Below are positions 30,135-49,213 of a stretch of DNA of 64,000 nucleotides, one piece after another. How positions within the stretch are numbered: the stretch's first letter is position 1; every line of letters begins with the position of its first letter. The translations under genes were made by a program, and so were the position numbers. Source of the DNA: Acidobacteriota bacterium (lineage in GTDB: Bacteria > Acidobacteriota > Vicinamibacteria > Vicinamibacterales > UBA2999); NCBI GenBank assembly GCA_030650395.1, contig JAUSDY010000016.1, positions 62,001-126,000 on the forward strand, in the 5' to 3' direction. Under the pieces are notes generated by a model, which was given only the letters and a program-made list of their open reading frames with translations, did no database searches and had not been told where the DNA came from.

Positions 30135-30971
30135 ATGGGCCACGGGCAATTGATCGACTGGACGAACCTCGAACAGTTCGCGGCACCCGCGGTGATTCCG
30201 GCGCAGTGGACCTTTGTGATTCCAGCCGCGGGCCGAGCGTCCCGTCTCGGTTTCGATCGACCAAAAATCCTCTATCCGGTCGCGCGGAGAACCATCCTCG
30301 AATGGCTGCTCGACTTCGCGGCGCCAAACTGCGCGCGCGTCGTGGTTGTGCTGTCTCCCGGCGGCCGAGCGCTCGTCGAACCGGAGCTCGAACGGCTGAT
30401 GCCGGGCCGGTGCGACACCGTCATCCAGGAAGTGCCGCGCGGGATGGGCGACGCGGTTCAAGCGGCCGTGCCCGTGGTCCGCACGCCCCGCGTCGCGCTG
30501 GTGTGGGGCGATCAAGTCGCGCTGCGTCGCGCCAGCGTCGAAGCCTGTCTTCGGCTGCATGCCGGTCCGCTCCAACCCGCCGTGACGTGCCCGACCGTCG
30601 TTCGCGAGCGCCCGTACATTCATTTCGACCGCGACGATGCCGGACGGATCTCAGGGCTGAGGCAAGCGCGCGAGGGCGACCTCATGCCCGACAGGGGCGA
30701 AAGCGATACCGGGTTTTTCTGTTTTCAGACGGCGCATCTGCGTGAGCTGCTGGCAGCGTCGCTGGCCAACCCAGGCGAGCATGGGCGCTCGACCGGAGAG
30801 CTCAATCTGCTCCCCGTCATCCCGCTTGCGGCCCGTCGGGGATTGACCGTGCTCACGCCGCATCTGATGACCCTCGAAGAAACCGTGGGCATCAATTCCG
30901 CCGCGGACGCGCGGGTTGTGGAATCATACCTGCAGACCTTGCATGCCAGCCCCGGACACCGAGAGAGTTGA
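30135..30971 (+). CDS. Sugar-phosphate nucleotidyltransferase
   Basis: 278 residues. The Rossmann-like NTP-transferase N-terminus is FVIPAAGRASRLGFDRPKILYPV, a GxGxRL-type site with a Lys for the phosphates. ALVWGDQVALRR (metal Asp), GESDTGFFCF and ELNLLPVIPLA are consistent with UTP- or dTTP-dependent hexose-1-phosphate uridylyl/thymidylyltransferases. It probably supplies nucleotide sugar to the two downstream glycosyltransferases. The start is ATG 30135, nine nt after TACAAT (30120-30125). Confidence 0.85.
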   Translation: MGHGQLIDWTNLEQFAAPAVIPAQWTFVIPAAGRASRLGFDRPKILYPVARRTILEWLLDFAAPNCARVVVVLSPGGRALVEPELERLMPGRCDTVIQEVPRGMGDAVQAAVPVVRTPRVALVWGDQVALRRASVEACLRLHAGPLQPAVTCPTVVRERPYIHFDRDDAGRISGLRQAREGDLMPDRGESDTGFFCFQTAHLRELLAASLANPGEHGRSTGELNLLPVIPLAARRGLTVLTPHLMTLEETVGINSAADARVVESYLQTLHASPGHRES

Positions 30972-34600: not shown

Positions 34601-35757
34601 GGGCGCGGCGGCTCAGACGAGGCCGGCACGGGCACGGCCGCGCGACGGCGTTTCTCCATCGAAGCGCGGACCAGGAAGCGTGCGTACGGCACCACCTGCT
34701 TGATGGCCGCCACGTTCATCTGGCACGGGCTCAGGCACGTCGGGCACTTGTGATCGCGAATGTCGCGGCGGTGCGCCTGCGCGGTGTCGCGGAAATAGAT
34801 CGCTGCCGGATCTTCCTGCGTCACGTTGCCGATGATTTCGCTGTTCTCGCAGAAGAACAGGTCGCCGTTCGGGTTCAACATGATGCCCTGCGTCTGGAAC
34901 GGGCAGGGCGCGGTGCGGTGATAGCCGTTGGCGATCATGTCCGCGTAGTGCATGTAGATGTAGTTCTGCCCGTCGAGCAGCGGGTCCTGGCGCACGCGGT
35001 CCATGAAGAACTTGCGCATGGTCTGCTCTTCAACGCCGACCGGCTTCATGCCGCCCTCGAGATCGCTGTTGCCCAGCATGGCGTCGGTAAAGCGCACCAT
35101 GTTGAACACGATGTCGAGTTTTTCTTTCTTCGCCCAGGCCAGGATGTTGTCGGCATCGGCGAGGTTCTTCGAGAAGATCGTCGACGAGATCCCGAAGTTG
35201 AACTTGTGCGTCTTCTGCAGCTCCTGCATGGCCGCAATGGTCTTGCCGGCCTTTTCGAACGCATTGCGCACGTTCCTGACCGAGCCGTGCATTTCGTTGA
35301 CGCCGTCGATCGACACCCGCATCGAGAAGATCACGTTCCGCTCGTTGCACAGCTTCACCACTTTGGTGAGCATCGGGATGGCGCGGTGGTGCGTGATGCC
35401 GGTGGTGTTCAGCGTGAGCTTGCGCAGCTTGGGGAACTTGTCGATCATCAGGCCGCAGATTTCGACCATGTCGTTGCGCGTGGTCGGCTCGCCGCCCGAG
35501 AGCGAGGCGTTCTCGATGTCTTTCCAGAACGGCGAGCTGAACGCCCGCTCGATCTGCTCGAGGGTCATGTCTTCCTTGCGGTTGCCGCGCGTCCAGTTGC
35601 TGCACATCTCGCAGCGGGCGTCGCACACAAACGTGCAATGGAAGATGAAAACGGTGGGGTGGAGCGGGGTGTACTTGGCCACCGCGGCGCGAACCAAATC
35701 GCGCGGGGCGCTCATCGCCGCTTTGGCGAGATACTTGGCGGCGTAAACCTGAGCCAT
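34585..35757 (-). CDS. Radical SAM/SPASM-type protein
   Basis: 390 residues. The CxxxCxxC cluster motif is HCTFVCDARCEMCSNW (SAM [4Fe-4S] site), with LSGGEPTTRNDMVEI (GGEP) and MRVSIDGVNEMHG. A C-terminal Cys set (APCPFQTQ, FFCENSE, DHKCPTCLSPCQMN) forms a SPASM or twitch auxiliary cluster. The family includes HpnH-like and glycan- or peptide-modifying enzymes; the substrate here is unknown. It starts at ATG 35757. The palindrome pair at 35793-35835 lies just upstream. Confidence 0.88.
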   Translation of the reverse strand: MAQVYAAKYLAKAAMSAPRDLVRAAVAKYTPLHPTVFIFHCTFVCDARCEMCSNWTRGNRKEDMTLEQIERAFSSPFWKDIENASLSGGEPTTRNDMVEICGLMIDKFPKLRKLTLNTTGITHHRAIPMLTKVVKLCNERNVIFSMRVSIDGVNEMHGSVRNVRNAFEKAGKTIAAMQELQKTHKFNFGISSTIFSKNLADADNILAWAKKEKLDIVFNMVRFTDAMLGNSDLEGGMKPVGVEEQTMRKFFMDRVRQDPLLDGQNYIYMHYADMIANGYHRTAPCPFQTQGIMLNPNGDLFFCENSEIIGNVTQEDPAAIYFRDTAQAHRRDIRDHKCPTCLSPCQMNVAAIKQVVPYARFLVRASMEKRRRAAVPVPASSEPPRPQPVA

Positions 35758-35792: not shown

Positions 35793-35835
35793 CGACAAAC
35801 CTTAAGTCTGTGGCGACAAACCTTTAGGTTTGTCG
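35793..35835. repeat. Family A palindrome, degenerate plus perfect copy
   Basis: A degenerate copy, CGACAAACCTTAAGTCTGTG (35793-35812), is followed directly by a perfect copy (35814-35835: arms CGACAAACC/GGTTTGTCG, loop TTTA). On the minus strand the perfect copy is read CGA CAA ACC TAA, so it supplies the last codons R-Q-T and the stop of the flippase gene. Confidence 0.92.
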
Positions 35836-36780
35836 ATCCCGGGACCGCAACCACAGCCACAGGCCGGGCAGGTTCCCCGCCAGGCCCGTCAGCACGATTA
35901 AGGTCGAAAGCGCAAAGGATGAGCTGTCGGGGACGCCCATGGGGCGCAGCAGCCAGACGATCACGCCTTGAGGCAGTCCGAAACCGCTGATCGAGATGGG
36001 CAGCAGAAGCATCAGCAGCCCGATCGGCATGAACAGCAGGAAGTAACTGAACGGCACGGACATCCCGAGCCCGAGGGCGAGGATGTAGGCCTGCGTGATC
36101 CGCAGCAACTGGACCACGAGCGACCACGCCATCACGTGGACCAACACGCCGCGACGGTTGCGGTAGCGGCTGACCGCATCGCTCAGCCGCAGCATGCGCC
36201 GCGTGACCGCTCCTTCGTGGCGATGGGTGGGCACGAGCCACCGCAGCCATTGGTCGGCCCAGAACACCGCGACGCACGCGCCGGCCATCACGATCACCGC
36301 CGTGGCGATCCGCCAGTCGCCGCGCCCTTCGGGCGCCCACGCAATCACGCCGACAGCCCCCATCGCGACGAGCGAGAGCACGCCTAGCAATCGATCCACC
36401 GCGACTGACGCGAGCGCCTCGCTGCCCGTTGTGGATTCGCGCGCCAGGCCATAGGCCCGAGCCGCGTCGGCGCCGACGCCGGCCGGCAGAAAGCTGCCGA
36501 CAAAGGAGCTCACGAGGAACAAGCGCATGGCGTCGCGTGTGGCGATGGCGATGCCGCTCGCTCGCAGCAAAAGAATCCACCGCAGGATCATCACCGCGCG
36601 ATCGATGGCCACGAGCGCGAGCACGGCGAGCAGGTGGGGGCGCCGGATCGCGCCTACCGCGCGCGCCGCCTCGGCCATATCGATGCGCGTCGCGAGGTAA
36701 GCGAGGATCGCGGCGGTGACGATCAGCCGAATCAGCGTTGAACGGCCCGCCCGTGCGAAGAGGTCTCGCACGCCGATCAC
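35824..36780 (-). CDS. UPF0104/LPG_synthase_TM-type flippase-like membrane protein
   Basis: 318 residues with about eight membrane helices. It has VTAAILAYLATRIDMAEAARAV, RWILLLRASGI, FLVSSFVGSFLPAGVGADAARAYGLARE and PISISGFGLPQGVIVWLL. These are hallmarks of the lysylphosphatidylglycerol-synthetase transmembrane family, including AglD/AglR-type proteins tied to polyprenyl-linked glycans. It probably flips or moves a lipid carrier. Its C-terminus RQT-stop is created by the palindrome. The start overlaps the methyltransferase stop (ATGA). Confidence 0.85.
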   Translation of the reverse strand: MIGVRDLFARAGRSTLIRLIVTAAILAYLATRIDMAEAARAVGAIRRPHLLAVLALVAIDRAVMILRWILLLRASGIAIATRDAMRLFLVSSFVGSFLPAGVGADAARAYGLARESTTGSEALASVAVDRLLGVLSLVAMGAVGVIAWAPEGRGDWRIATAVIVMAGACVAVFWADQWLRWLVPTHRHEGAVTRRMLRLSDAVSRYRNRRGVLVHVMAWSLVVQLLRITQAYILALGLGMSVPFSYFLLFMPIGLLMLLLPISISGFGLPQGVIVWLLRPMGVPDSSSFALSTLIVLTGLAGNLPGLWLWLRSRDRQT

Positions 36781-37502
36781 CCGACCGGCGGTTTCCGGGC
36801 GGCGAAGGTCAGGGTTTCGAACAGGTTCTTCCGCACCTTGAAGAGCAGGTCTTCCGTGCCGGTGTAGCGCGAGAGCGCATCGACGCCAGGGATGTTGATG
36901 AGTAACGCCGCCGCTGCCAGCGCGTCGCGCGCGAGGCCCGTTGCGGTACCGATCGCACGCTCGACGGCGAGGATCTCGAATCCGCCGTCAACCATCAACT
37001 GCTTCACGCGGCGCTCGGTCGTCACGAAGTTGTGCGTGTAGTCGACGTCCCAGAAGAACGTCCGCTCCTTCAGGTAATCCGGGACGACGACGAAGAAGAT
37101 GCCGCCGGGCCGAAGCGCGCGGCGGGCCTCCGCAGTGAACTGGCGCGCGGCATCGATGCCGCTCATGTGCTCGAGCACTTGATCGGCGTAGACCACGTCG
37201 ACGCTGGTATCCGGCACCGGGATCGGAGGGGCCCACGACGGGATCACTGTGAGGCCCTTCGCCCGTAGCACCTCGATCAGGATCTCGCTGGCTTCGATCG
37301 CCGTGTAGCGCCAGCCGGCGGCGACGGCGCGCTCGGCAAACGTCCCGTGGCCCGGTCCGATTTCGACCATGTCGCCCCGACGGGCCGTAAATTGATGAAG
37401 GAGATCGAGGCGGTGCTGCTCAATCCGCCCCCGGCGGGCGGCGCCGTAGCTGGTGAGCTTTTTTTCCGAAAACGATTTGTAAAAGGTCGAAGGTTCGGAC
37501 AA
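36777..37502 (-). CDS. SAM-dependent methyltransferase (type 11)
   Basis: 241 residues. It has MVEIGPGHGTFAERAVAAG (motif I), YTAIEASEILIEVL, VDVVYADQVLEHMSG and AEARRALRPGGIFFVVVPDYLKE. The N-terminal YGAARRGRIEQHRLDLL is a lid region. It is the first gene of a minus-strand unit with the flippase. The methyl acceptor is not identified; a glycan or lipid-linked intermediate is plausible given the neighbours. Confidence 0.85.
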   Translation of the reverse strand: MSEPSTFYKSFSEKKLTSYGAARRGRIEQHRLDLLHQFTARRGDMVEIGPGHGTFAERAVAAGWRYTAIEASEILIEVLRAKGLTVIPSWAPPIPVPDTSVDVVYADQVLEHMSGIDAARQFTAEARRALRPGGIFFVVVPDYLKERTFFWDVDYTHNFVTTERRVKQLMVDGGFEILAVERAIGTATGLARDALAAAALLINIPGVDALSRYTGTEDLLFKVRKNLFETLTFAARKPPVG

Positions 37503-37621: not shown

Positions 37622-38554
37622 ATGAACTACAGAAATCTTGTTCGAACTGCCGCTTTTGCGGCTTTGTGCGCTGTCACTCTGGCCGCCTGCGAAGGTGGGA
37701 TGGCCTCGCCCGTTTCGCCTTCGGCCGTGACGAGCCTGGGCGGCGCGCTGAACGCCGACGGCTCCACCATGAAGACGACCGCGCCTAATGGCGTCTTCCC
37801 GCTGGCCGACGCGACCAACGTGCCGGTGGTGGCGATCCTTACCGTCCAGGGGGCACGCGGCGTCCACCTGATCACGACGTTCGCCCATCGCTTCCAGGTC
37901 GCCGACTCCGACAGTTTCGGCACCATCCTCTCGACCGGTATGGGCGCGATCGATCCGCAGGGTCTGATCCGCTTCACCACCGATTCGCTGCCCGCCGCCA
38001 AGAAGGTGTTCTGGCGCAGCCGCGCGGAAAGCGACGACAAGTTTGGCCCGTGGTCGCCGGTGATGGCGTTCACCACCGTCGGCGCCGCGCCGCCGGCCGG
38101 GCCGTCGACGCCGATCATCGGCAACGCGCCGCCCGCCGGGCCGCGTCCGGCCGATCCGCCTGCGGGCAGTCGACTACCGCTGCCCGACGCGCGGCCGTTC
38201 ATCAACCAGGCCCAGGGACGCCTCGGCTCGCTCGCGTCGTGCCCGAACGGCCGCAAGTACGAGAACAACCCGTGGCTCGATGCCCTGGTCGATGCGCTTC
38301 GTGCCGACAATTCGCGCTGGGGTTATAACGGCAAGCCGACCCGCTCGGCCGCCGACAACAGCGGCTTCCCGGTGATCGCGGCCGGCGACGAGCTCGCCTA
38401 TCACTACGGCGCGGGTCCGAGCTTGAACTCGCGCGACGTCTACCTGATCGACGCCCTCGCCGGCCACTGCGGCGACAACCCGAGCACGACCTATCGGGAC
38501 TTCACCGGTGAAGAGCAAGGCTTCTGGACCGGCGCCGGCCGGTTCTCGCAGTAG
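37622..38554 (+). CDS. Lipoprotein with conserved RWGYN...GHCG domain, paralogue 1
   Basis: 310 residues. The lipoprotein signal ends at AVTLAAC. An Ig/FN3-like domain follows (about residues 60-155), then a Pro/Ala-rich hinge and a C-terminal domain of about 120 residues: DPPAGSRLPLPD, WLDALVDALRADNSRWGYNGK, YHYGAGPSLNSRDVYLIDALAGHCGDNPS. The same C-terminal domain occurs in the lipoproteins at 40340-41242 and 45394-46614. This copy has a CPNG Cys rather than the SCQ motif of the others. I do not recognise the domain. It is likely displayed on the cell surface near glycan machinery. Confidence 0.7.
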   Translation: MNYRNLVRTAAFAALCAVTLAACEGGMASPVSPSAVTSLGGALNADGSTMKTTAPNGVFPLADATNVPVVAILTVQGARGVHLITTFAHRFQVADSDSFGTILSTGMGAIDPQGLIRFTTDSLPAAKKVFWRSRAESDDKFGPWSPVMAFTTVGAAPPAGPSTPIIGNAPPAGPRPADPPAGSRLPLPDARPFINQAQGRLGSLASCPNGRKYENNPWLDALVDALRADNSRWGYNGKPTRSAADNSGFPVIAAGDELAYHYGAGPSLNSRDVYLIDALAGHCGDNPSTTYRDFTGEEQGFWTGAGRFSQ

Positions 38555-38577
38555 TCATCCGCTAGTCGACATGGCAA

Positions 38578-38611
38578 GAAAAAAGGCAGGTCATCGCGAC
38601 CTGCCTTTTTT
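38578..38611. terminator. Bidirectional intrinsic terminator
   Basis: Stem GGCAGGTC (38585-38592) and GACCTGCC (38598-38605) with a 5-nt loop. An A-tract lies before it and a T-tract after (TTTTTT, 38606-38611), so it can work in both directions. It lies between the convergent lipoprotein and membrane-protein genes. Confidence 0.92.
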
Positions 38612-38625
38612 GGTCCGGCCAATCT

Positions 38626-38653
38626 TTGGTTATTCGTAATTGGTTATTGGTTA
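38626..38653. repeat. TTGGTTA heptamer repeat at a gene 3' end
   Basis: TTGGTTA, TTCGTAA, TTGGTTA, TTGGTTA: four 7-bp units, the reverse complement of the CCAATAA family at 22036-22070. The minus-strand membrane-protein gene ends within it. Its last codons AAT AAC CAA and the stop TAA are repeat sequence. Confidence 0.9.
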
Positions 38654-40260
38654 TTTTCTTCCGTCCGCCTGCCGTAAGCGAACAGCCCGATCAAGAAGAA
38701 CGGGTAGAACCAATTCACGTAGACGCCGGTGCCGTGAATCTTCGACAGCTGCGCCACGATCGCGAGGGCGCCGGTGATGAGCGCGAGCTGCTGCGGCGTC
38801 GTCTTTCGTGCCACGAAGAACGTCGCCGCCGCAAAACCAATGGTCATCAGGAACATCGGGCTGGTGGTGAACTCGCCTTTGACGAACGGCTCGCGAAAGA
38901 AAGCCCGGATATCGTCGCGCTGCCCCCAGAAGCCGTAGGTGCTGAGGCCATAGGTATCGGTGCCCTGGTGATGTCCTACGGTCTCGCGCACGACGGTGCT
39001 GAGCAAACTGCGCCCTTCAATCGCTTGCGAAAGCGCGAGCACGGGCCCGCCGATCAGCACGGCGGCGATCGCGACGCCCGCGAGGAAGCGCAGCGCCGAC
39101 GGCCGCCGGTCCCAGTAATGTCCCAGCCACGCGGGGAAGAACAGCACCGGATAAAACACGGTGGCCGCGCTGGCCACCAGCAGCAAACCGGTGGTGAGCG
39201 GACGCGAGTACGAGAGCGCCGCAAAGGCGACGAGCGACACGGCCGCTGGCGCGATGTGCGAAATGAACGTGATGCCGCCGATCATCTCGCGCGGACCGCC
39301 GACGCCCATCACGTAGGCGCTGCCGCAGTAGAGCGCGGCGAGTCCCCACGCCACCTGCGGGCCCGCAAGACGCCGCCCGAGCGCGACGAGGGCGACGACA
39401 CCCAGCAGGTGAAATGTGACCGTCGCCAACTGGCTCGCCAGCAGCGGCGGCAGGTGGTACTGCGCGCCGGCGCCGAGATCCGCCCTCGAGTAGTCGCCGC
39501 GGTTGAGCGGCTCGGGATTCAGCAGGAACTGGAACGGCAAATGCGCAAGGTACAGAACCGGACCGTAGCCCGCGCCTGCGCTGTTGGTGAGCAGCGGATC
39601 GCCGTACGGCATCCGTCCGCGCTCGCGAAGCCGCTGCGCCCCTAAATTCGTATAGAACCCCGCATCGTCTGGCGGTGTGACCATGCCGATGAATACGTCG
39701 AGGCTGAAGAGCACCACTGTCAGCATGACGAGGGCGCGAACGGGGAGATTCGGCCGCCACGCGTCGGCAGCGCCGCGCCGAACTCTCCAGAGGGCGATAC
39801 TCACAAGGAACAGGTTGATCGCCATGATCGCGCGGTAGACGTAATCCATCACCCAGAAGTAGGTCGGATCGGTCAGCAAATCGAAGAACCGCATGATGTT
39901 GAAGAGCAGGAATCCGATCGCCATCAGCGCCAGGAACACGGCGTTCCGCAGGCTCAACGGGCGCGAATAGTCGAAGGCGACCACGAGCGCGACAATCAGC
40001 GCGATCCACAGCGCGCCGGCCTGGGTCGGCAGCATCGTGTGCCGGAAGCCGGCGCCCGGTGCACCCTTCAAGTCGGACCACACGGTGGATAGCACCTGAC
40101 CAACGCCCGGGTTGGGCGGTGGCGGCTCGAAGATGGTGTTGTGCAGATGTCGAGGGGTGAGCAGATCGCGCTCGGGAGAGGCGAAGTGAACGGCGAGAGC
40201 GGTGCCGACGATCAGAACGAGAAACGCACAACCAAGAGCAACGAGAGACTTTCGATCCAC
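38644..40260 (-). CDS. Polytopic membrane protein, GT87/DUF2029-like
   Basis: 538 residues with 11 or more hydrophobic helices. The first is FLVLIVGTALAVHFA, and a loop TPPDDAGFYTNLGAQRLRERGRMPYGDP resembles the donor/acceptor loop of GT87/ArnT-type enzymes with its acidic residues. No further motif was recognised. It is a likely polyprenyl-sugar-dependent membrane glycosyltransferase. The C-terminal NNQ comes from the heptamer repeat. It shares the region with the lipoprotein paralogue upstream on the same strand, separated by a palindrome (40283-40312). Confidence 0.65.
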   Translation of the reverse strand: MDRKSLVALGCAFLVLIVGTALAVHFASPERDLLTPRHLHNTIFEPPPPNPGVGQVLSTVWSDLKGAPGAGFRHTMLPTQAGALWIALIVALVVAFDYSRPLSLRNAVFLALMAIGFLLFNIMRFFDLLTDPTYFWVMDYVYRAIMAINLFLVSIALWRVRRGAADAWRPNLPVRALVMLTVVLFSLDVFIGMVTPPDDAGFYTNLGAQRLRERGRMPYGDPLLTNSAGAGYGPVLYLAHLPFQFLLNPEPLNRGDYSRADLGAGAQYHLPPLLASQLATVTFHLLGVVALVALGRRLAGPQVAWGLAALYCGSAYVMGVGGPREMIGGITFISHIAPAAVSLVAFAALSYSRPLTTGLLLVASAATVFYPVLFFPAWLGHYWDRRPSALRFLAGVAIAAVLIGGPVLALSQAIEGRSLLSTVVRETVGHHQGTDTYGLSTYGFWGQRDDIRAFFREPFVKGEFTTSPMFLMTIGFAAATFFVARKTTPQQLALITGALAIVAQLSKIHGTGVYVNWFYPFFLIGLFAYGRRTEENNQ

Positions 40261-40282
40261 GGTGTGGAATTGTACAAGAGTC

Positions 40283-40312
40283 GAGGGGACAAACCGTCAG
40301 GTTTGTCCCCTC
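40283..40312. repeat. Family A variant palindrome (13-bp stem, loop GTCA)
   Basis: Arm GAGGGGACAAACC, loop GTCA, arm GGTTTGTCCCCTC: 13 perfect pairs. It keeps the GACAAACC/GGTTTGTC core of family A but has a changed loop and extended stem. It lies between the two minus-strand genes ending at 40340 and starting at 40260, where it can act as a terminator. Confidence 0.88.
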
Positions 40313-40339
40313 GTGAGTGGTCGAACCGATCGCGGTCGC

Positions 40340-41242
40340 TTAGCGGCGACCGGGCCGGCGATAGATGTAGCGTCCGAGCGTGCCCGAGTTGAACGTGATG
40401 TCGGTCACGTTGCCCCAGGTGATCGACGGATTCGATCCGCAGTGGCCGCCGATGAGGTCGATGATGTAAACCTGCGAGCTGCCCTCGTCTGGACCCGCGC
40501 CCCAGTGGTACGAGACGACGTCCAGCGACGGGTCATTCATGTTGCCGCGCTTGGCGTTGTAGCCCCAGCGCAGATCGATCGACTGCATCGCATCGACGGT
40601 GAGATCCATGAACAACCAGGAGCCGCCTTCAGGCTGGCAGGAATTACGCAGCGCGGCCGGGTTGGCGTTGGCGACCGCTTGCACCACACCCTGCCGGTTG
40701 ATCAGCGGCAGGCGCTGACCCGCGGGCGGATCCGGCGTGCGGAACGCGTCGGGACCAGGGCCACCGGGGATCGGCGCGGCCGGCGCGGCCGGCGCCGGCA
40801 CCTTGAACTCCGCCCAGATCGACCAGGGGCCTCTCATCTCAGCGAGGGCGGCGCGGATGCGCCACGAGTGCACGACGTTTTGCGCCAGGTCCTTGCCGAC
40901 TTTGTGGGAGCCTGTATTTGGCGTCTCGCCGACGATCATTGAGTAGACGTTGGTGCCGTCGGGGATCTGGATTTCGATCTCGTACGCCAAGCCGACCGAC
41001 CCGTAGTTGCCGTTGGAGTTGGCCCACACCAGCGTGGGCGTGCGGGAGTCGGCGTTCACGCCATCGATTGGGCTGACGATCGCCGGAGGCGTGACCTTGA
41101 GCGTCGATCCGTCCGGTGCGGCAGCCAGGCTCCCTCCGGTCGTGGCGGACGGCGCAGTCGGGGGTTGCGGCATTGCCGAGCACCCGGCAAGAGATACCGC
41201 GAGAACAGCGTACAGGCCGAGCACGTAAAACTTAGTCTTCAA
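40340..41242 (-). CDS. Lipoprotein with conserved RWGYN...GHCG domain, paralogue 2
   Basis: 300 residues. The start is TTG 41242, with an AGGAGA Shine-Dalgarno eight nt upstream; the only upstream ATG lies before that site. The signal peptide ends at AVSLAGC. An FN3-like domain (PPAIVSPIDGVNADSRTPTLVW ... WRIRAALAEMRGPWSIWAEFKV) is followed by a Pro/Ala hinge. The shared C-terminal domain then reads DPPAGQRLPL, NSCQPEGGSWLFMD, DLRWGYNAKRGN, SYHWGAGPD and VYIIDLIGGHCGSNPSITW. Two Cys (SCQ and GHCG) may form a disulphide. Function unknown. Confidence 0.72.
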   Translation of the reverse strand: MKTKFYVLGLYAVLAVSLAGCSAMPQPPTAPSATTGGSLAAAPDGSTLKVTPPAIVSPIDGVNADSRTPTLVWANSNGNYGSVGLAYEIEIQIPDGTNVYSMIVGETPNTGSHKVGKDLAQNVVHSWRIRAALAEMRGPWSIWAEFKVPAPAAPAAPIPGGPGPDAFRTPDPPAGQRLPLINRQGVVQAVANANPAALRNSCQPEGGSWLFMDLTVDAMQSIDLRWGYNAKRGNMNDPSLDVVSYHWGAGPDEGSSQVYIIDLIGGHCGSNPSITWGNVTDITFNSGTLGRYIYRRPGRR

Positions 41243-41458
41243 AATTGGAGTCTCCTTTACCTCTCGCGGGCCGTTGCGCATCGCTCGCTGGGAGACGGGC
41301 CGGGAGGCAAACGCCCTAGATAATACCGCATTTCCTCTCGAAATAGAGCTGGACCGTTACGATTTTCGGCAATTCTTCACGCCCTGCGCGGCCTATGCTA
41401 AAGTTCTTCGCGGACGGGTCATCCCACGGCCCCATTTTTGCGGAGCGAAAACAACACG

Positions 41459-42223
41459 ATGCGAAGACTTGCACTGACCTTTCTTGTGACCGGCCTGATC
41501 GCAGGCGCGTCGCGCGACGCGGCTGCTCAAACACGAGCGTGGGACGATCGCGTTTACCTCAATGTCGGGTTTGGCGTCGAGTCGGGCACGTCGGCCTTGA
41601 CCGATACGAGAACTTTCCTGATTTACGATGAAACCGGCACGGTTTCCTCGAGCAGCACCTACACGTCGGGCAGCCTCTTCGATGTTGGCATCGGGTTCCG
41701 CGTCTGGAGGAATGCGTCCGTCGGCGTCGCGTACCACCAGGAACAAAATACGGCCGACATCGATCTGACCGGGTCGGTGCCGCATCCGGTGTTCTTCAAC
41801 CAGCCGCGCCCCTTCACTGCCAAGGCCGGTGAAGCTGCGTTCCGCAAAGAGAAGGCGACCCACCTGCAATTCGGATGGATGTTGCCCTTCGGCGACAAGC
41901 TCGACGTGCTCGTCTTCGGCGGCCCATCGTGGTTCCGGCTCGAGCAGCCGGCAGTGGGCGAGGTCAGGATCGCCGACCAGAGCTCGCCGTTCCTACAGGT
42001 GACGGTGGACCCGAGGGTTGAAATCCGGAAGAAGAGCCCGATCGGCTTCAACGTCGGTGCTGACGCGTCCTACATCGTGTGGCAGAACGACTCGATCCGT
42101 GTTGGCGCCGGCGTTTTCGTGCGCTACGCGCGTGCACAAACCAACGTGCTGCTGCTGTCAACGGAGCAGCCGACCGACGTGGGCGGACTGCAGATCGGGT
42201 TCGGCGGCCGCCTCCGCTTCTAG
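41459..42223 (+). CDS. Outer-membrane beta-barrel protein, unknown
   Basis: 254 residues. A signal peptide (LALTFLVTGLIAGASRDAAAQ) is followed by alternating amphipathic strands such as RVYLNVGFGVESG, LFDVGIGFRVW, VGVAYHQEQ, LQFGWMLPFGDKLDVLVFGGP and DVGGLQIGFGGRLRF, with a terminal Phe. This is the look of an 8-12-strand barrel such as an OmpW/OmpA-like porin-type protein. It starts at ATG 41459. It stands alone between a lipoprotein and a methyltransferase in the glycan region. Confidence 0.7.
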   Translation: MRRLALTFLVTGLIAGASRDAAAQTRAWDDRVYLNVGFGVESGTSALTDTRTFLIYDETGTVSSSSTYTSGSLFDVGIGFRVWRNASVGVAYHQEQNTADIDLTGSVPHPVFFNQPRPFTAKAGEAAFRKEKATHLQFGWMLPFGDKLDVLVFGGPSWFRLEQPAVGEVRIADQSSPFLQVTVDPRVEIRKKSPIGFNVGADASYIVWQNDSIRVGAGVFVRYARAQTNVLLLSTEQPTDVGGLQIGFGGRLRF

Positions 42224-42318
42224 TGTTTCGGCTTGGGTGTCGTCAGGCACCCAGGCCATCACCAACGACGCGACCCTGAGCCTTGACGCCCTTCGCCCTG
42301 AGCGGTACCGTTCGCTGA

Positions 42319-43650
42319 ATGCCCACCGAGCCCGACCGCCCGCTGGTCACCCGCGAGATCGCCGAGCGAGACGACGCCCATCGTCGATATAACGAAGCGC
42401 TCACGGCGCTGGACAAAGCCATTCAATCGCTGCCGGAGTGGCCGGCCCCGCCATCGGCTTACGACGAGACCATGCTCCCCGCGATCAACGAGGCCTGGAA
42501 GATCCTGCCCGAGGGCGGGCCTGCGACGTCGACGTGGGGCGCCGACAAGGCATGGCGGCTCGTCGCGCCGCTCTTCGAGCGCCAGATGGCGTTCAATGCG
42601 GCGCTGGTCGATCACCTCAATCGCAACGCTGCCGCGCATCGAGAGATTCACGATGCGGTGGCGCGCGCGCTGCCGGCGACGCGCGAGAGCCTCGCGGCCC
42701 TGGCGGGCTTCGAATCGCTCCTGGTCCAGTTTCTTCAGCGCATCACGCCGCTGGCCGATGCCCGCGATCGCGAAACGCGGCAAGCGATCGACGAGCTCCG
42801 TAATGTCGCCGAGGTCGCACAACGCGCCGCGGTGATGGCCAAGCGCGAGATCGAGCGGCTAGCAACAGGCACCCCCAAAGAAGGGCCTGCTGTGGAGGCG
42901 CCCCCTTCTTTGGGGGCGCCTTTCAAGGTCAAGGCTTCCTCAGAAGCTTACAAATACCTCGGCTTCGAGGATCGCTTCCGCGGATCTGAAGACGACATTC
43001 GCGCGCGACTGGCCGACTACGCGCCGTATTTCGACGGCGCCTCGAACGTCCTCGACGTCGGCTGCGGCCGCGGCGAGTTCCTGGCCTTGCTGAAGGAAAG
43101 GGGAGTCGCGTCGAAAGGCCTCGACCTCAACCCCGAAATGGTGGAGGCGTGCCTGGCGCGCGGCCTCGACGTCTCGACCGGCGATGCGTTAACCGTCCTG
43201 CACGGGCTGCCGGACGAATCGCTTGGCGGGCTGATCGCCGTGCAGGTCATCGAACATCTGGAGCCGGCCTACCTCTCGGATTTTCTCCAGACCGCGTACT
43301 ACAAGCTGCGCCCCGGGTCGCGCATCGTGCTCGAGACGATCAACCCGGCGTGCTGGGTCGCATTTTTCGAAAGCTACATCCGCGACCTGACACACGTGCG
43401 GCCGATTCACCCTGAAACCTTGCAGTACATGCTGCACGCGAGCGGGTTTAGCGCGGTCGACCTGGTCTATCGCTCACCGATCGCTGAAGAGGCGCGGTTG
43501 CAGCGCGTGACCCCACGACCGGAGCACTTTGGCGACGCGAGTGCCGACCCCGTGACCGAGCTGGTATCGGCATTCAATCGCAACATGGATCGGCTCAACA
43601 GCCGGCTGTTCACGTTCCAGGACTACGCCGCCGTCGCGCGCCGCTCGTGA
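42319..43650 (+). CDS. Coiled-coil plus SAM methyltransferase (glycan-cluster type)
   Basis: 443 residues. Residues 1-180 are helical: TREIAERDDAHRRYNEALTALDKAI and the Ala/Glu-rich AQRAAVMAKREIERL. Residues 210-430 are a class I methyltransferase with SNVLDVGCGRGEFLALL, GLDLNPEMVEACLARG, GLIAVQVIEHLEPAYL and LETINPACWVAFFESY. This helical-plus-methyltransferase layout resembles enzymes of O-antigen/exopolysaccharide loci that cap chains. The linker GTPKEGPAVEAPPSLGAP is encoded by an inverted repeat (42868-42920). It overlaps the next gene by GTGA. Confidence 0.82.
   Translation: MPTEPDRPLVTREIAERDDAHRRYNEALTALDKAIQSLPEWPAPPSAYDETMLPAINEAWKILPEGGPATSTWGADKAWRLVAPLFERQMAFNAALVDHLNRNAAAHREIHDAVARALPATRESLAALAGFESLLVQFLQRITPLADARDRETRQAIDELRNVAEVAQRAAVMAKREIERLATGTPKEGPAVEAPPSLGAPFKVKASSEAYKYLGFEDRFRGSEDDIRARLADYAPYFDGASNVLDVGCGRGEFLALLKERGVASKGLDLNPEMVEACLARGLDVSTGDALTVLHGLPDESLGGLIAVQVIEHLEPAYLSDFLQTAYYKLRPGSRIVLETINPACWVAFFESYIRDLTHVRPIHPETLQYMLHASGFSAVDLVYRSPIAEEARLQRVTPRPEHFGDASADPVTELVSAFNRNMDRLNSRLFTFQDYAAVARRS
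42868..42920. repeat. In-frame inverted repeat in the methyltransferase linker
   Basis: GGCACCCCCAAAGAAGGG (42868-42885) and its near reverse complement (42903-42920) flank a 17-bp core. The whole repeat is translated as a flexible linker between coiled coil and catalytic domain, keeping the frame. It is a different sequence from families A-C. Confidence 0.82.
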
Positions 43651-45380
43651 ATCGATCGGAGCTTCGCCGCACCGCGCTCGTCGCGCTCGGCTTCGCCGCG
43701 TTAACGATCGCGTTTGCGTATCCCGTGTCGATGCATCCGGCAACGACGCTGCTGGCCGACAACCCTGATACCCATCTCTTCCTGTGGACGCTCGCGTGGG
43801 ATGCCCACGCGCTCATCGCCCAGCCGCTGTCGTTGTTCGACGCGAATATCTATTTTCCGTACTCGGGCACGCTGGCGTATTCGGAGAACCTGCTGGGTAG
43901 CGGGCTGCTGGCCGCGCCCATCATCTGGCTGACCGGCAACCTGGTGCTCGCGCTCAACTTCGTGCAACTGGCGTCGTGCGTGCTCTGCGGACTCGGGGCC
44001 TATGTGCTGGCCAGGCGCATCGGCATCAGCCGGGCCGGGGCCGTGCTCGCCGGCATCGTGTTTCTCGCCGCGCCGCCGCGCTTCTTCCGCATCGGACAAC
44101 TTCACCTCACCGCGGTGCAATGGGTGCCGTTTGGCCTCGCGTATCTGCATACCTATCTGGACGGCGGGCGCAAGCGCGATCTGCGAATCGCGGTCGCGTT
44201 CTTCACGCTGCAGGCGCTCACCAGTGGACACGGCGCCATCTTTCTCGGCGTGTCGATGCTCGCGCTCGTGATTTATCGCGTGGCCCTCGGCGAGCCGCTC
44301 GCGTTGGCAAAGCGGGCGCGCGATCTGGGTGTGGCCGGACTCGCGCTGCTCGTGCCGCTCGTCTGGCTGTTCGCACCGTATCGAGCGGCGCAAGCCGAGG
44401 TCGGCCTCAAGCGCTCGCTGGAGAGCTGGCTGCCGACGCCCTCGAGTTATCTCGCGACGCCGTCGCACTTGCATCAGTACCTGCGCGCGCTCATCACCGA
44501 CACCAATTTCAACGACACCGCCAGTGCGTGGCTGTTCCCCGGCGTCACGGTGCTGATCTTTGCCGCCATGGCGCTGCTGCCTTCGCGGACGCTCGGCATC
44601 GGTGACGACTGGCGCGCAAGGCTTCGGCGCAACAGCGGCGTGTTCTATGCGTTGCTCGCGTTATTGGCGGTGTGGTTGTTTCTGCCGGCCCCGGTGGGGT
44701 TGTGGCCGTACGTCTACGCGCTGCCTGGAATGAATTTCATTCGCGTGCCTTCGCGGTTCATGATCCTCGCGATGCTCGCGCTCGGCGTGGCGATGGGCGC
44801 CGGGTTCGATCGGCTGCTTGCCCTGAGCGACGCGCGCGCTTTCGCGCGCGGAGTCGAAGGGCTCGGCGCATCACGCGCGGCACTGCGTACGACGGCGGCG
44901 ATCGTCGTTGGTGTGATGCTGATTGCTGAGTACGCGAGCATGCCGCTGGCCAGCGTGCCCTTTACAGTCGACATACCCGCCATCGACCGGTGGCTCGATA
45001 CGCAGCCCAAGCCGTTTGCGATTGCCGAGGTCCCGGTCCCGAGTCCTGGCGATCTGGGCGCGTACGAACGGCAGCAGACCATGGCGATGCTGCACTCGAC
45101 GGCGCACTGGCAAAAGACCATTCACGGCTATAGCGGTATTCGCCCGGCGCTGCATCAGCGGCTCAACCTCGAGCTCACGGCATTTCCAGACGAGACGAGC
45201 CTGCGCAGCTTGCGCGAGCTGGGCGTTCGATATGTGGTGGTGCACGAGGAGATGTATCCGCCGGAGCGGCGGGTCGAGGTCGACGCGCGATACGCGCGCC
45301 ATGCCGGCGATCTGAGGCTGGAGCATGTCGAAGGCCCGGGGAGGATCTATTTGATCCTGCCCAAGCCCCCGGCACCTTGA
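43647..45380 (+). CDS. Polytopic membrane protein, GT-C-like
   Basis: 577 residues with about 12 membrane helices and a C-terminal soluble domain (VDIPAIDRWLDTQPKPFAIAEVP ... VRYVVVHEEMYPPERRVEVDARY). The first loop NPDTHLFLWTLAWDAHALIAQP is acidic, as in GT-C enzymes. YFPYSGTLAYSENLLGSG and PGMNFIRVPSRFMILAMLALGVA are characteristic of a widespread uncharacterised bacterial family. GTG 43647 overlaps the methyltransferase stop. An ALSD...GVEG palindrome (44818-44861) is inserted in a loop. Confidence 0.68.
   Translation: MNRSELRRTALVALGFAALTIAFAYPVSMHPATTLLADNPDTHLFLWTLAWDAHALIAQPLSLFDANIYFPYSGTLAYSENLLGSGLLAAPIIWLTGNLVLALNFVQLASCVLCGLGAYVLARRIGISRAGAVLAGIVFLAAPPRFFRIGQLHLTAVQWVPFGLAYLHTYLDGGRKRDLRIAVAFFTLQALTSGHGAIFLGVSMLALVIYRVALGEPLALAKRARDLGVAGLALLVPLVWLFAPYRAAQAEVGLKRSLESWLPTPSSYLATPSHLHQYLRALITDTNFNDTASAWLFPGVTVLIFAAMALLPSRTLGIGDDWRARLRRNSGVFYALLALLAVWLFLPAPVGLWPYVYALPGMNFIRVPSRFMILAMLALGVAMGAGFDRLLALSDARAFARGVEGLGASRAALRTTAAIVVGVMLIAEYASMPLASVPFTVDIPAIDRWLDTQPKPFAIAEVPVPSPGDLGAYERQQTMAMLHSTAHWQKTIHGYSGIRPALHQRLNLELTAFPDETSLRSLRELGVRYVVVHEEMYPPERRVEVDARYARHAGDLRLEHVEGPGRIYLILPKPPAP
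44818..44861. repeat. ALSE/RVEG palindrome with nested hairpin (copy 1)
   Basis: CCCTGAGCGA (44821-44830) and GAGTCGAAGGG (44851-44861) flank a nested CGCGCGCG-CTTT-CGCGCGCG hairpin. It reads LALSDARAFARGVEGL in the membrane protein. Related copies are at 48168-48221, 60331-60361 and, in the other orientation, 63093-63117. Confidence 0.8.
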
Positions 45381-45393
45381 CGACAACTGTTGA

Positions 45394-46614
45394 CTAGAAC
45401 CGTCCGCGCGAGATCCACCGGCCAATCGTGCCGGAGTTGATGGTCACGTCCGTCACATCGCCCCAGCTAGGTGAGGGGGTCGCACCGCAATGCCCGCCAA
45501 CGACGTCGATGATGTAAACGTCGGTGCTGTTCTGGTCGGGTCCACCGCCGTAGTGATAGTCGACCACGTCCTTCGACGGATCGTTCGCGTTGCCGCGCTT
45601 GCCGTTGTAACCCCACCGCGTGTCGTAGGTCCGCAGCGTATCCACTACCTGGTCCATGAACTGCCAGCTGCCGCCTTGGTCCTGGCAGGAGTTCTGGAGG
45701 GCGCCGGGGTTGGCCTGGGCCACGGCCGCGACGATATGAGACATGTTCGGCAGAGGCAATCTGCCGCCGGACGGATCGGCCGCGCGGCCGCCATTGCCCT
45801 TGGGCACGCCCCCGGGGACGCCGCCACCACCACCAGGAGGAGGCACCACCACCGGCGGCGGACTGGTCCTGAAGGCCAGTGTCTGCGAATGCCCAGACTG
45901 CTTGGTACCGTCGGTACCGTAGACGCGCCAGTACAGCACGGTGTTGTACGGCAGCTCGCCGAGCGTCATCGACGTGTTGCCGTCGCCGCCGGGCGAGGCG
46001 GTCACAACCGCCATGGCCGGGGACATCTCGGCGTTGTTGGAGACCTCGAAGCGATACACGACACCGGTCGTGCCGGAGATCGCGCCGTTACGCGCTTTGA
46101 AGGTCGGCTTGTTGGTGGTGAGGTTGCCGCTCGGCTCGACGGCCACGGGCGCCTCGATCACCACGGGCACGACCACGGTGAAGTTGGAGACGGCGGAGTA
46201 GGGGCCGGTATTGGCGCCGTCTGCCGCGCGCGTGCGCCAGTAGTAGGTGAAGCCCGCGCCGAGGGGTTCGGGCAGCCGGTACGCCGTGCGGCCGTTTGGA
46301 CCGGGTTCGATTCTGTCGGCCTGATGGACGATCTGCTGGAAGTTCGAGTCCGCCGCCATCTCGAGCTGCAGCCAGATCGCTCGCTGCCCGGATGAGCCGG
46401 GGTTTTCGATCAGCAGCGTGTACGGATCCGACGACGCCACCAGCGTGGCGCCTGCGCCAGGCTCGAGGGGCTTGGGAGCGGTGATTGAAACCCCCGGAAT
46501 GGGGCCGGCTACCGTGGGCGCGGTCGGATTGGCGCTCTCAGCGAACTCGCAACCAGCCAGGCAAACTATTGCAAGGAGAGCACTTAGCCAACGGTACGGG
46601 TAAAATCTGGACAT
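45394..46614 (-). CDS. Lipoprotein with conserved RWGYN...GHCG domain, paralogue 3
   Basis: 406 residues. The lipoprotein signal LSALLAIVCLAGC is followed by two FN3-like domains (for example AGFTYYWRTRAADGANTGPYSAVSNFTV and VLYWRVYGTDGTKQSGHSQTLAF), each about 95 residues. A Gly/Pro-rich hinge leads to the shared C-terminal domain: SGGRLPLPNMSHIV, NSCQDQGGSWQFMDQVVDTL, DTRWGYNGKRGN, DYHYGGGPDQNSTDVYIIDVVGGHCG and PSWGDVTDVTI. It has one more Ig-like domain than its two paralogues. It starts at ATG 46614, with GTG 46617 just upstream. Function unknown. Confidence 0.72.
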   Translation of the reverse strand: MSRFYPYRWLSALLAIVCLAGCEFAESANPTAPTVAGPIPGVSITAPKPLEPGAGATLVASSDPYTLLIENPGSSGQRAIWLQLEMAADSNFQQIVHQADRIEPGPNGRTAYRLPEPLGAGFTYYWRTRAADGANTGPYSAVSNFTVVVPVVIEAPVAVEPSGNLTTNKPTFKARNGAISGTTGVVYRFEVSNNAEMSPAMAVVTASPGGDGNTSMTLGELPYNTVLYWRVYGTDGTKQSGHSQTLAFRTSPPPVVVPPPGGGGGVPGGVPKGNGGRAADPSGGRLPLPNMSHIVAAVAQANPGALQNSCQDQGGSWQFMDQVVDTLRTYDTRWGYNGKRGNANDPSKDVVDYHYGGGPDQNSTDVYIIDVVGGHCGATPSPSWGDVTDVTINSGTIGRWISRGRF

Positions 46615-46988
46615 CACTGGAGAGACCCTCGAATATGAGTATCGACACTACTTCCCGCAGCTTTACACCTCGGCACTAGCGCGAGGGTCCGGCACAGCTT
46701 CGCTGACACCGAATCCGGTCATGAATGGATAACCCTTGGGCAGATAGCAAATAAAAGGCCACAATTGTTGTCCGCACGACAAGGGCGCCGCCGCAGTGTT
46801 GCCGACGAGTGGCCCACCGATTTTGGTATTGCGATTACAGGAATCGCGATCGCCAGACGGCGGCCGAAGCCGCAGATCTTTGGTCAATTCAAACTGAAAC
46901 TTTGAACTGAAACTTGAAACTTAAAACTGTTAACTTTGAACTGCTATTCTACCATAACTGTATAAGGCTCAGTTAGATATAATGACCC
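46615..46988. other. Intergenic region with GAAACTT repeat and promoter
   Basis: A 374-bp gap between divergent genes. A 74-residue minus-strand frame (46663-46887; GYPFMTGFGVSEAVPDPRA) might be the remnant of a small secreted or pilin-like protein, but nothing supports it firmly. From 46889 to 46944 runs a low-complexity repeat of AAACTG, GAAACTT and TTGAACT units with 5-9 bp spacing. A TATAAT (46978-46983) follows, five nt before the GTG of the glycosyltransferase. Confidence 0.5.
46978..46983 (+). promoter_or_regulatory. -10 element of the GT4 operon
   Basis: Consensus TATAAT with only GACCC between it and the GTG start at 46989. Transcription would start at or beside the start codon, so the mRNA should be leaderless. 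No good -35 is visible (TAACTG with a 17-nt spacer is weak). Confidence 0.55.
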
Positions 46989-48224
46989 GTGCGCATCCTG
47001 ATGCTCGCGCCGGAGCCGTTCTTCGAGCCGCGCGGCACCCCCTTCAGCGAGTACCACCGCATCAAGGCCCTCGGCGAGTTGGGGCACCGGATTGACCTCG
47101 TCACCTATCCCTTCGGCCTGGACGTCGACCTGCCCAACCTCAGGATTTTCCGGTCGATGCGGCCGCCGTTTGTCCGCAAGGTTCGGATCGGGCCGTCGTT
47201 CACGAAGCTGGCACTGGATGGGTTGATGCTGCTGACCGTGGCCCGGCGCGCCATGGCGGAGCGCTACGACGCCATTCACTCGCACGAGGAAATGGGGTTG
47301 GTGGGTGTATGGCTGGCCCGGTGGTTGCGAATTCCGCACCTCTACGACATGCACTCGAGCCTTCCGCAGCAGTTGAGTAACTTCAAGTACAGCAAGTCCG
47401 GCCTGCTGAGGAAGATCTTCGTGTGGGCCGAGGGTCAGATGGTCCGCAAGTCGCAAGTGGTGATCACGATTTGCCAGGAGCTGCAGCACACCGTCATCGA
47501 CATGGGCGTGGGCGAACGCTCGCTCCTCATCGAGAACGTCATGGGCGGCGATGTGGACGACCCGCCGACCCGGTCGCCTCAGGAAGTGCGCGCCGCATGG
47601 GGCGTGGCCCCGGATGCGCCGCTCGCGCTCTACACCGGCACCTTCGAGGCTTACCAGGGCGTCGAGATGTTGATCGAGGCGGCGGCGATCGTCGCCCGGC
47701 GCAGGCCGGATGCCCGCGTGCTGGTTGTTGGTGGAGAAGCGCCGCAGGTCGAGGCCGCGAAATCAAAGGCGCAGGCCGCAGGCGTGTCGGCCGCGATGAT
47801 TTTCACCGGCCAGCAGCCCGCGCGGGAGATTCCCGGCTTCGTGCAGGCCGCCGACCTGCTGGTCTCGCCTCGCATCCGCGGCACCAATACGCCGCTCAAG
47901 ATTTATTCGTACCTGCGATCGGGCAAGCCGATCGTCGCCACCGATCTGCTGACGCATACGCAGGTGCTCACGCCCGCGATTGCGAAGCTCGTTCCACCGC
48001 TGCCGGGACCGTTTGCGCAAGCCGTGCTCGATCTGATCGAGCATCCCGAAGACGGTGCCCGCCTGGCGGCGGCCGCTCGCGCGGTGGCCGACGACAAGTA
48101 CGGCCGCGAGTCGTACGTGCGCCGCACCGCCCAGGCCTATGCACGCTTGATGGATCCGGGAGCCCGGCCTGCCCTGAGCGAGCGCGCCTCCGGCAACGCC
48201 GGAGGCAAGCGAGTCGAAGGGTGA
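46989..48224 (+). CDS. GT4 glycosyltransferase
   Basis: 411 residues with a GT-B fold. N-terminal MLAPEPFFEPRGTPFSEYHRIKAL is an acceptor-side loop with HRIDLVTYP. The donor half has LALYTGTFEAYQGVEMLIEAA, RVLVVGGEAP, MIFTGQQPAREIPGFVQAADLLVSPRI and TPLKIYSYLRSGKPIVATD (E/K-rich nucleotide-sugar binding). It heads a five-gene operon with overlapping starts (46989-53383). The C-terminal ARPALSERASGNAGGKRVEG is repeat-derived (48168-48221) and dispensable-looking. Confidence 0.88.
   Translation: MRILMLAPEPFFEPRGTPFSEYHRIKALGELGHRIDLVTYPFGLDVDLPNLRIFRSMRPPFVRKVRIGPSFTKLALDGLMLLTVARRAMAERYDAIHSHEEMGLVGVWLARWLRIPHLYDMHSSLPQQLSNFKYSKSGLLRKIFVWAEGQMVRKSQVVITICQELQHTVIDMGVGERSLLIENVMGGDVDDPPTRSPQEVRAAWGVAPDAPLALYTGTFEAYQGVEMLIEAAAIVARRRPDARVLVVGGEAPQVEAAKSKAQAAGVSAAMIFTGQQPAREIPGFVQAADLLVSPRIRGTNTPLKIYSYLRSGKPIVATDLLTHTQVLTPAIAKLVPPLPGPFAQAVLDLIEHPEDGARLAAAARAVADDKYGRESYVRRTAQAYARLMDPGARPALSERASGNAGGKRVEG
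48168..48221. repeat. ALSE/RVEG palindrome with nested hairpin (copy 2)
   Basis: GCCCTGAGCG (48171-48180) and GCGAGTCGAAGG (48209-48220) flank a nested CCTCCGGC-AA-CGCCGGAGG stem. It is read in frame as PALSER...KRVEG and makes the C-terminus of the GT4 enzyme. It is also directly upstream of the epimerase GTG start. Confidence 0.85.
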
Positions 48225-49213
48225 AAGTGCTCGTCACCGGCGCAACCGGTTTTACCGGTGGCCACCTTGCCGCCACCCTCGCGGCGCGCGGCAACGAGGT
48301 CCGCGCGCTGGTCAGGCCGAAGAGCCGCGCCCGCTTCGATCGTTCGCCGCTTGCCGCCGCGGGTGTCACGGGGGTTGAGGGCGATCTCACGAATCTGGCG
48401 TCGATGCGCCGCGCCGTGGCCGGCATCGAGGTCGTCTACCACATTGCGGCGACCTATCGCGAAGCCGGACAGCCCAACTCGGCCTACCGCGACATCAACG
48501 TGCAGGGCACGCGACATGTGCTCGAGTCGGCGCGCGAGGCTGGCGTTCGGCGCGTCGTGCATTGCAGCACCGGCGGTGTGCACGGGCACGTCGCGAATCC
48601 GCCGGCCAACGAAGACGCGCCGTTCAACCCGGGCGATGTGTATCAGCAGACCAAGCTCGAGGCCGAACAGCTCGCGCGCGAATTCGGCAAGTCGTCCGGG
48701 CTCGACGTGGTGGTGGCCAGGCCGATCGGCATCTACGGTCCGGGCGACAAGCGCTTTCTGCGAATGTTCCGCGGGCTGGCGCGCGGCCGCTTCCCGCTGA
48801 TCGGCTCGGGCCAGGTCTTCTATCACCTGACGTTCATCGACGATCTCGTCGAAGGGTTCCGGCTGTGCGGTACGGTTCCCGCCGCGGCGGGGCGAACGTA
48901 TCTACTGGCCGGGCCGCGTTACACCACGCTTGAAGCGCTGCTGGGACTCGTCGCGAAGGAGCTGAACGTCGAGCCGCCGAAGATGCATCTTCCGGTGTGG
49001 CCGTTCTGGACGGCGGGCTTGCTGTGCGAGCTGGCCTGCATTCCGCTCAGGATCGAGCCGCCGATTTATCGCCGCCGCGTTGACTTCTACACGAAGAGCC
49101 GGGCCTTCGACACCACCCGCGCACGGACCGAGCTGGCCTTCGCGCCAAAGGTCGATCTCGAAGAGGGCATTCATCGAACGGCCGACTGGTACCGAAGCGA
49201 GGGGTGGTTGTGA
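48221..49213 (+). CDS. NAD-dependent epimerase/reductase (HpnA-like extended SDR)
   Basis: 330 residues. The NAD site is VLVTGATGFTGGHLAATLA. Other visible sites are VYHIAATYREAGQP, HCSTGGVHG, catalytic YQQTKLEAEQ (YxxxK), VVVARPIGIYGPGDKRFL and FIDDLVEGFRL. Similar proteins include hopanoid HpnA and dihydroflavonol-reductase-like epimerases. It is translationally coupled: GTG 48221 overlaps the GT4 stop (GTGA). In a glycan operon it probably edits a nucleotide sugar or lipid-linked sugar. Confidence 0.87.
   Translation: MKVLVTGATGFTGGHLAATLAARGNEVRALVRPKSRARFDRSPLAAAGVTGVEGDLTNLASMRRAVAGIEVVYHIAATYREAGQPNSAYRDINVQGTRHVLESAREAGVRRVVHCSTGGVHGHVANPPANEDAPFNPGDVYQQTKLEAEQLAREFGKSSGLDVVVARPIGIYGPGDKRFLRMFRGLARGRFPLIGSGQVFYHLTFIDDLVEGFRLCGTVPAAAGRTYLLAGPRYTTLEALLGLVAKELNVEPPKMHLPVWPFWTAGLLCELACIPLRIEPPIYRRRVDFYTKSRAFDTTRARTELAFAPKVDLEEGIHRTADWYRSEGWL

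What the first reader, a model, noticed from the sequence alone, without database searches (positions are those of the whole stretch)
37622..46614. Three paralogous lipoproteins with an unrecognised C-terminal domain
Genes at 37622, 40340 and 45394 encode lipoproteins with FN3-like domains and a shared 120-residue C-terminus: (D)PxxGxRLPLP, D.RWGYN(G/A)K, YHxGxGPD, VYIIDxxxGHCGxxPS. They are interleaved with GT-C-like membrane proteins. Two have a paired Cys (NSCQ and GHCG). Aromatic and acidic residues at fixed positions suggest a carbohydrate-binding or enzymatic surface domain.
Basis: partly seen in the sequence, partly recalled or inferred. Interest (0 to 1): 0.72.

Follow-up and report, generated by a model that had tools for sequence, protein, structure and literature searches.

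The report
Unnamed surface-lipoprotein domain in glycan locus
Three outer-surface lipoproteins of an uncultured Acidobacteriota bacterium end in a well-folded 130-residue domain that no protein-family library names; it travels with one conserved sugar-polymer gene cluster and is also carried by a few viruses of bacteria, so it probably recognises or processes cell-surface glycan.

Summary
Three lipoproteins (37622-38554 +, 40340-41242 -, 45394-46617 -) share a C-terminal ~130-residue domain (43-64% identical), the only copies in the 5.4 Mb genome. The N-terminal part is FN3-like: two repeats in the 45394 protein. All three, not two, have both cysteines. Pfam and NCBIfam name no member; PHROGs, PADLOC and PDB sequences give nothing for the window proteins. 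AlphaFold2 folds the domain with high confidence (pLDDT 96.5), but PDB Foldseek finds no relative (best E 1.8); two uncultured-phage proteins match. The domain occurs in 46/162 genomes of the order, some Myxococcota, and three kinds of viral contig beside virion or lysis genes, on varied Ig-like scaffolds. R57, D73 and D94 never vary. In 21 genomes it lies 5-12 kb from one GT-C-like membrane protein of a glycan locus; within the family the two co-occur (21/22 versus 0/21). Best reading: outer-membrane lipoproteins that bind, or perhaps process, the glycan made by that locus, beside a putative beta-barrel. Association and predicted fold are shown; glycan binding and surface exposure are inferred. 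A new domain family on a familiar kind of surface lipoprotein.

The parts
37622..38554 (+). Lipoprotein P0001 (310 aa): signal peptide/lipobox LAAC, middle region, C-terminal domain of the insertion subtype
38144..38551 (+). C-terminal domain of P0001
   Evidence: profile matches
40340..41242 (-). Lipoprotein P0002 (about 300 aa from TTG 41242): lipobox LAGC, one weakly Ig-like region, C-terminal domain
40343..40741 (-). C-terminal domain of P0002
   Evidence: profile matches
45394..46617 (-). Lipoprotein P0003 (407 aa): lipobox LAGC, two FN3-like repeats, Gly/Pro linker, C-terminal domain
45397..45786 (-). C-terminal domain of P0003: AlphaFold2 pLDDT 96.5; R57, D73, D94 invariant, C34/C100 probable disulfide (domain numbering)
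46168..46494 (-). FN3-like repeat 1 of P0003
   Evidence: AlphaFold2 model and structure alignment
45853..46164 (-). FN3-like repeat 2 of P0003
41438..42223 (+). Putative outer-membrane beta-barrel protein (261 aa), conserved next to domain genes; no Pfam hit
   Evidence: sequence pattern read by eye
38644..40260 (-). 538-aa polytopic membrane protein, GT-C-like by eye only
43647..45380 (+). 577-aa polytopic membrane protein, GT-C-like by eye only
42319..43650 (+). Methyltransferase (443 aa)
36777..37502 (-). Methyltransferase (241 aa), neighbour of domain genes in many genomes
35824..36780 (-). Flippase-like membrane protein (TIGR00374 / LPG_synthase_TM)
34585..35757 (-). Radical SAM/SPASM protein of the locus
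46989..48224 (+). GT4 glycosyltransferase
49204..50415 (+). GT4 glycosyltransferase
50412..52346 (+). 644-aa GT-C-like membrane protein (weak match to NF047440 LA_3751 family putative glycosyltransferase), marker gene of the locus
52346..53383 (+). GT4 glycosyltransferase

Best explanation
The three proteins are lipoproteins, probably on the outer membrane, whose FN3-like repeats act as a stalk carrying a compact C-terminal recognition domain. The domain binds the surface glycan made by the surrounding locus (GT4 and GT-C-like transferases, epimerase, flippase-like protein, methyltransferases) and, with the neighbouring putative outer-membrane barrel, helps to place, retain or cross-link that glycan at the cell surface, much as Wzi does for capsule. 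A few phages carry the same domain in virion/lysis modules, plausibly to grip the same glycan. Shown: lipobox, FN3-like repeats in P0003, a conserved well-predicted domain, strong linkage and co-occurrence with one glycan locus, phage carriage beside virion/lysis genes. Inferred: outer-membrane location, surface exposure, glycan binding, partnership with the barrel.
For: Synteny: the order GT4 - 644-aa membrane protein - GT4 - (epimerase) - GT4 - domain gene - barrel - domain gene - methyltransferase - flippase-like - radical SAM recurs across many contigs. Domain genes lie 4.7-12.1 kb from the marker gene in 21 genomes, including two single-contig ones. Within the family the marker is in 21 of 22 genomes with the domain and 0 of 21 without (six genera with both, 18 with neither). 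Order-wide: 41/46 versus 62/116. The domain is C-terminal in all bacterial members read in full and is fused to fn3, Big_2, He_PIG, NBR1-type Ig and Rha78A-type Ig scaffolds, as expected of an exposed functional end. R57, D73, D94 are invariant and G59, N61, K63, Y77 over 90% conserved in 47 non-redundant members, viral ones included. Viral copies sit beside nozzle/connector-type and lysis genes.
Against: No ligand, activity or localisation was tested. The invariant charged residues would suit an enzyme at least as well as a lectin. Several genomes carry extra domain copies away from the locus (beside pyrH/frr or yajQ-like genes), so the glycan link is not exclusive. 62 of 116 genomes of the order without the domain still have a relative of the marker gene, so the domain is accessory. 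Co-occurrence is not corrected for phylogeny beyond genus counts. No structural similarity to any carbohydrate-binding module was found.
Confidence: 0.42

Rival explanations
1. The domain is an enzyme that modifies, trims or transfers the glycan at the cell surface (hydrolase, lyase or ligase type), with D73, D94, R57, N61, K63 and H99 as active-site residues on one face of the sheet; phages use it to cut host glycan.
For: The L084 viral copy lies just before a lysis cassette.
Against: No similarity to any known enzyme family or fold beyond noise; up to six copies per genome and fusion to stalks is also typical of binding modules; H99 is lost in a few members.
Confidence: 0.27
2. The lipoproteins are structural or acceptor proteins: the locus glycosylates them, or they form a surface coat, and the domain is a folding or assembly module without a ligand of its own.
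For: Putative GT-C-like transferases lie directly beside the lipoprotein genes; neither Wza-type exporter (PF02563) nor exosortase (PF09721) was found in the genome, so export by the standard capsule route is not evident.
Against: Invariant charged residues have no obvious role in a passive coat protein; phage virion/lysis-module carriage suggests an outward interaction; the domain occurs on many unrelated scaffolds.
Confidence: 0.15
3. The glycan link is a by-product of location: the domain serves adhesion, predation or another surface task and simply sits in a genomic region rich in surface genes.
For: Other genomic contexts exist (near pyrH/frr, near yajQ) and Myxococcota copies show none of the locus's gene families within the fetched flanks (L057, L061, L062, L064, L068).
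Against: Constant 5-12 kb spacing to the marker gene in 21 genomes of several families and near-perfect co-occurrence in the family.
Confidence: 0.14

Closest known systems
Uncultured Caudovirales phage proteins A0A6J5QSJ9 and A0A6J5MLQ7 (BFVD)
   Same: Foldseek E 6.8e-8, TM 0.71, 27% identity over 118 columns for the first; weaker match (probability 0.95, TM 0.52) for the second
   Different: Both uncharacterised, so they give no function
Wzi, outer-membrane lectin of E. coli group 1 capsule (PMC3791409)
   Same: Proposed role only: an outer-membrane component tied to a polysaccharide locus that binds the polymer and supports surface assembly
   Different: Wzi is an 18-stranded barrel, not an FN3 lipoprotein; no sequence or fold relation is claimed. 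No Wza-type exporter domain found in this genome
FN3-domain surface proteins
   Same: The P0003 N-terminal region aligns to tandem FN3 structures (best Z 11.7, 171 residues, rmsd 11.6 A, high because of the angle between repeats; single repeat 2.2 A over 92 residues with the Parabacteroides beta-1,2-glucanase structure 5z06, Z 11.2)
   Different: The C-terminal domain is not FN3

Membership tests
Any named Pfam or NCBIfam family (for the C-terminal domain) | Score above a curated cut-off over the domain | tested here: not met
   No member reaches a cut-off; best is a chance-level E 0.07
Fibronectin type III / Ig-like scaffold (N-terminal region) | Ig-like beta-sandwich repeat | tested here: met
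   P0003 residues 42-255: two sandwiches at high pLDDT aligning to FN3 tandems; fn3 above cut-off in a relative. Weak only for P0002, none for P0001
Bacterial lipoprotein | Signal peptide with lipobox [LVI][AS][GA]C | tested here: met
   LAAC, LAGC, LAGC read in the sequences; lipidation itself not tested
Outer-membrane, surface-exposed lipoprotein | Outer-membrane localisation and surface exposure | not testable with these tools
   No Asp at +2 (E, S, E), which is compatible by the E. coli rule; needs experiment
Carbohydrate-binding module | Demonstrated glycan binding, or fold/sequence match to a CBM family | tested here: inconclusive
   No sequence match; structure searches gave no relative; binding not testable
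NTF2-like | Cone-shaped alpha+beta fold, sequence or structure match | tested here: inconclusive
   phmmer 3duk E 0.055 only; not among the listed structure matches
Papain-like / SseI-type deamidase fold | Cys-His-Asp catalytic triad on that fold | tested here: inconclusive
   4g2b Z 3.0, 102 residues, 4.5 A, at noise level. The two conserved Cys are usually present or absent together, which fits a disulfide better than a catalytic Cys
Polymorphic toxin C-terminus | Variable C-terminal toxin domain with adjacent immunity gene | tested here: inconclusive
   No recurrent small gene follows the domain genes across loci (genes of 90 aa or more only); the domain is conserved, not swapped, at the syntenic places
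Known anti-phage defence proteins (PADLOC-DB) | Match to a PADLOC model | tested here: not met
   no match for the three proteins

The most novel reading that the evidence does not exclude
A new protein fold that is a glycan-active enzyme or lectin class of its own, shared between outer-membrane lipoproteins of Vicinamibacteria and virion/lysis modules of phages, working on a surface polymer exported without a Wza-type channel.
Probability: 0.18. Interest if true: 0.75.

Novelty: new variant of a known kind. Interest (0 to 1): 0.52.

Why it matters
Vicinamibacteria are widespread and hard to culture, and how they build and hold their surface glycan is little known. A compact, confidently modelled domain with three invariant charged residues, tied to one glycan locus and also carried by phages, gives a direct handle: one small recombinant domain can be tested for binding or activity on that glycan. 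It would also give a family model to a set of 'hypothetical' lipoproteins.

Tried and rejected
Pfam, NCBIfam, PHROGs, PADLOC and PDB-sequence searches: nothing. PDB Foldseek and VIA-align on the domain: best E 1.8 and Z 3.6 (myosin fragments, SseI, pilin, FBPase), all noise-level and mutually unrelated. NTF2-like hit 3duk at E 0.055 vanished with the profile. No match in 50,697 phage records apart from chance hits in primases, none in plasmid records. Further viral scans found no more members. XrtA/PEP-CTERM idea (from the amidotransferase at 22074, which scores below its cut-off): no exosortase in the genome. Wza-type capsule export: no PF02563. LPS absent? LptD model silent but LpxC clearly present, so lipid A synthesis is likely and loss of LPS cannot be claimed. 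A full-length model of P0003 gave poor confidence for the domain (shallow alignment of 9 close sequences); the domain-only model was used instead. A search of papers for the motif strings found nothing relevant.

Full report
Observation. Three ORFs in 37.6-46.6 kb encode lipoproteins (lipobox LAAC, LAGC, LAGC) with a shared C-terminal domain. A genome-wide search with the 45394 copy finds only these three in the 5.4 Mb assembly, at E 2e-89, 7e-55 and 8e-21.

Anatomy. The P0003 model has two beta-sandwich repeats (mature residues 20-233, pLDDT mostly about 83-96) that align to tandem FN3 structures, then a low-confidence Gly/Pro linker, then the domain. The domain alone, with a 45-sequence alignment, is predicted at pLDDT 96.5 and pTM 0.90: three helices, then four strands, a short helix and a last short strand. 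Foldseek against the PDB gives nothing (best E 1.8) and VIA-align no Z above 3.6. The library of viral models gives one clear relative (E 6.8e-8, TM 0.71) and one weaker one, both uncharacterised phage proteins. No library of cellular predicted structures was available, so 'new fold' is not claimed.

Conservation. In 47 members below 70% identity, R57, D73 and D94 never vary; G59, N61, K63, R52, L51 and Y77 are above 90%; C34 and C100 are each lost only in isolated members. One viral copy lacks both cysteines; in L061 and L092 one aligned Cys is missing and another Cys lies nearby, which still fits a disulfide. From the DSSP strand limits, an antiparallel register that puts G59, D73 and D94 side by side on one face, with R57 and N61 next to them, is plausible.

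Distribution. 22 of 60 sampled relatives, 46 of 162 genomes of the order and 10 of 297 of a phylum-wide sample have the domain, with one to six copies. The collection of named genomes adds Myxococcota (Kofleriaceae, Polyangiaceae, Sandaracinaceae). The domain is C-terminal on scaffolds that include fn3, Big_2, He_PIG, NBR1-type Ig and Rha78A-type Ig. IMG/VR contigs hold three distinct viral versions (L081, L082/L083, L084/L085). In two of them the domain gene follows a gene matched to nozzle/connector-type virion families (phrog_511, head closure Hc3), and in L084 it stands just before an endolysin cassette.

Genomic link. Neighbour genes cluster into a conserved glycan locus: GT4, 644-aa GT-C-like membrane protein, epimerase, domain gene(s), putative barrel, methyltransferase, flippase-like protein, radical SAM, then FAD-dependent oxidoreductase and asparagine-synthase-like amidotransferase. 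In 21 genomes a domain gene lies 4.7-12.1 kb from the marker gene on the same contig, two of these genomes being single-contig. Within the family the marker occurs in 21 of 22 genomes with the domain and in none of 21 without; by genus, 6 of 6 and 0 of 18. Order-wide the figures are 41/46 and 62/116, so the locus is wider than the domain. The five exceptions with domain but no marker are fragmented assemblies. In genus g21 both genes occur but on different contigs. Fisher p-values ignore phylogeny and are only indicative.

Mechanism. Most likely the lipoproteins hold or recognise the locus's glycan at the surface, with the barrel as a possible partner; an enzyme acting on that glycan is the main rival. 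Shown: anatomy, association, phage carriage. Inferred: localisation, ligand, partnership. The genome has LpxC; no Wza domain, exosortase or LptD-domain match was found, so how the glycan is exported is open.

Known or new. What it works like: possibly Wzi, the outer-membrane capsule lectin (PMC3791409); it is not a member of that family. Membership in any named domain family was tested and not met. I file it as an undescribed domain family on a familiar kind of surface lipoprotein.

Noticed in passing
L023 (G005) 1393-1602: A domain gene in a same-genus assembly lacks nearly the whole stretch between the two Cys motifs (NSCQDN joined to GHCG): internal deletion or assembly artefact.
   Followed up: no
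window 30916-32982: One ORF matches CofD (2-phospho-L-lactate transferase) in its N-terminal half and a GT2 glycosyltransferase in its C-terminal half, an unusual fusion.
   Followed up: no
window 22074-23960: Amidotransferase resembling the XrtA/PEP-CTERM system protein TIGR03108 (614 bits, below its cut-off), although no exosortase was found in the genome.
   Followed up: partly
window 1-64000 (assembly G000): LpxC present but no match to the LptD, Poly_export (Wza) or exosortase models in a 98% complete assembly; five Wzy_C proteins on other contigs.
   Followed up: partly
   Followed up: partly
L051, L052, L060, L065, L066, L067, L070, L071: A second conserved context: pairs or triples of secreted FN3 proteins with a WGLN-type domain; in most of these loci they lie beside pyrH/frr, phosphofructokinase-like and a GT-C-like gene.
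   Followed up: partly
L064 8435-10366, L068 9155-10354: Myxococcota proteins with two tandem copies of the domain; the first copy has lost N61 and changed K63 but keeps R57, D73, D94.
   Followed up: no
L063, L101 and G050:C1:2601807-2607382: Large proteins (700-860 aa) with the domain behind a long region that no Pfam model matched in the one tested (L063); three in tandem in G050.
   Followed up: no
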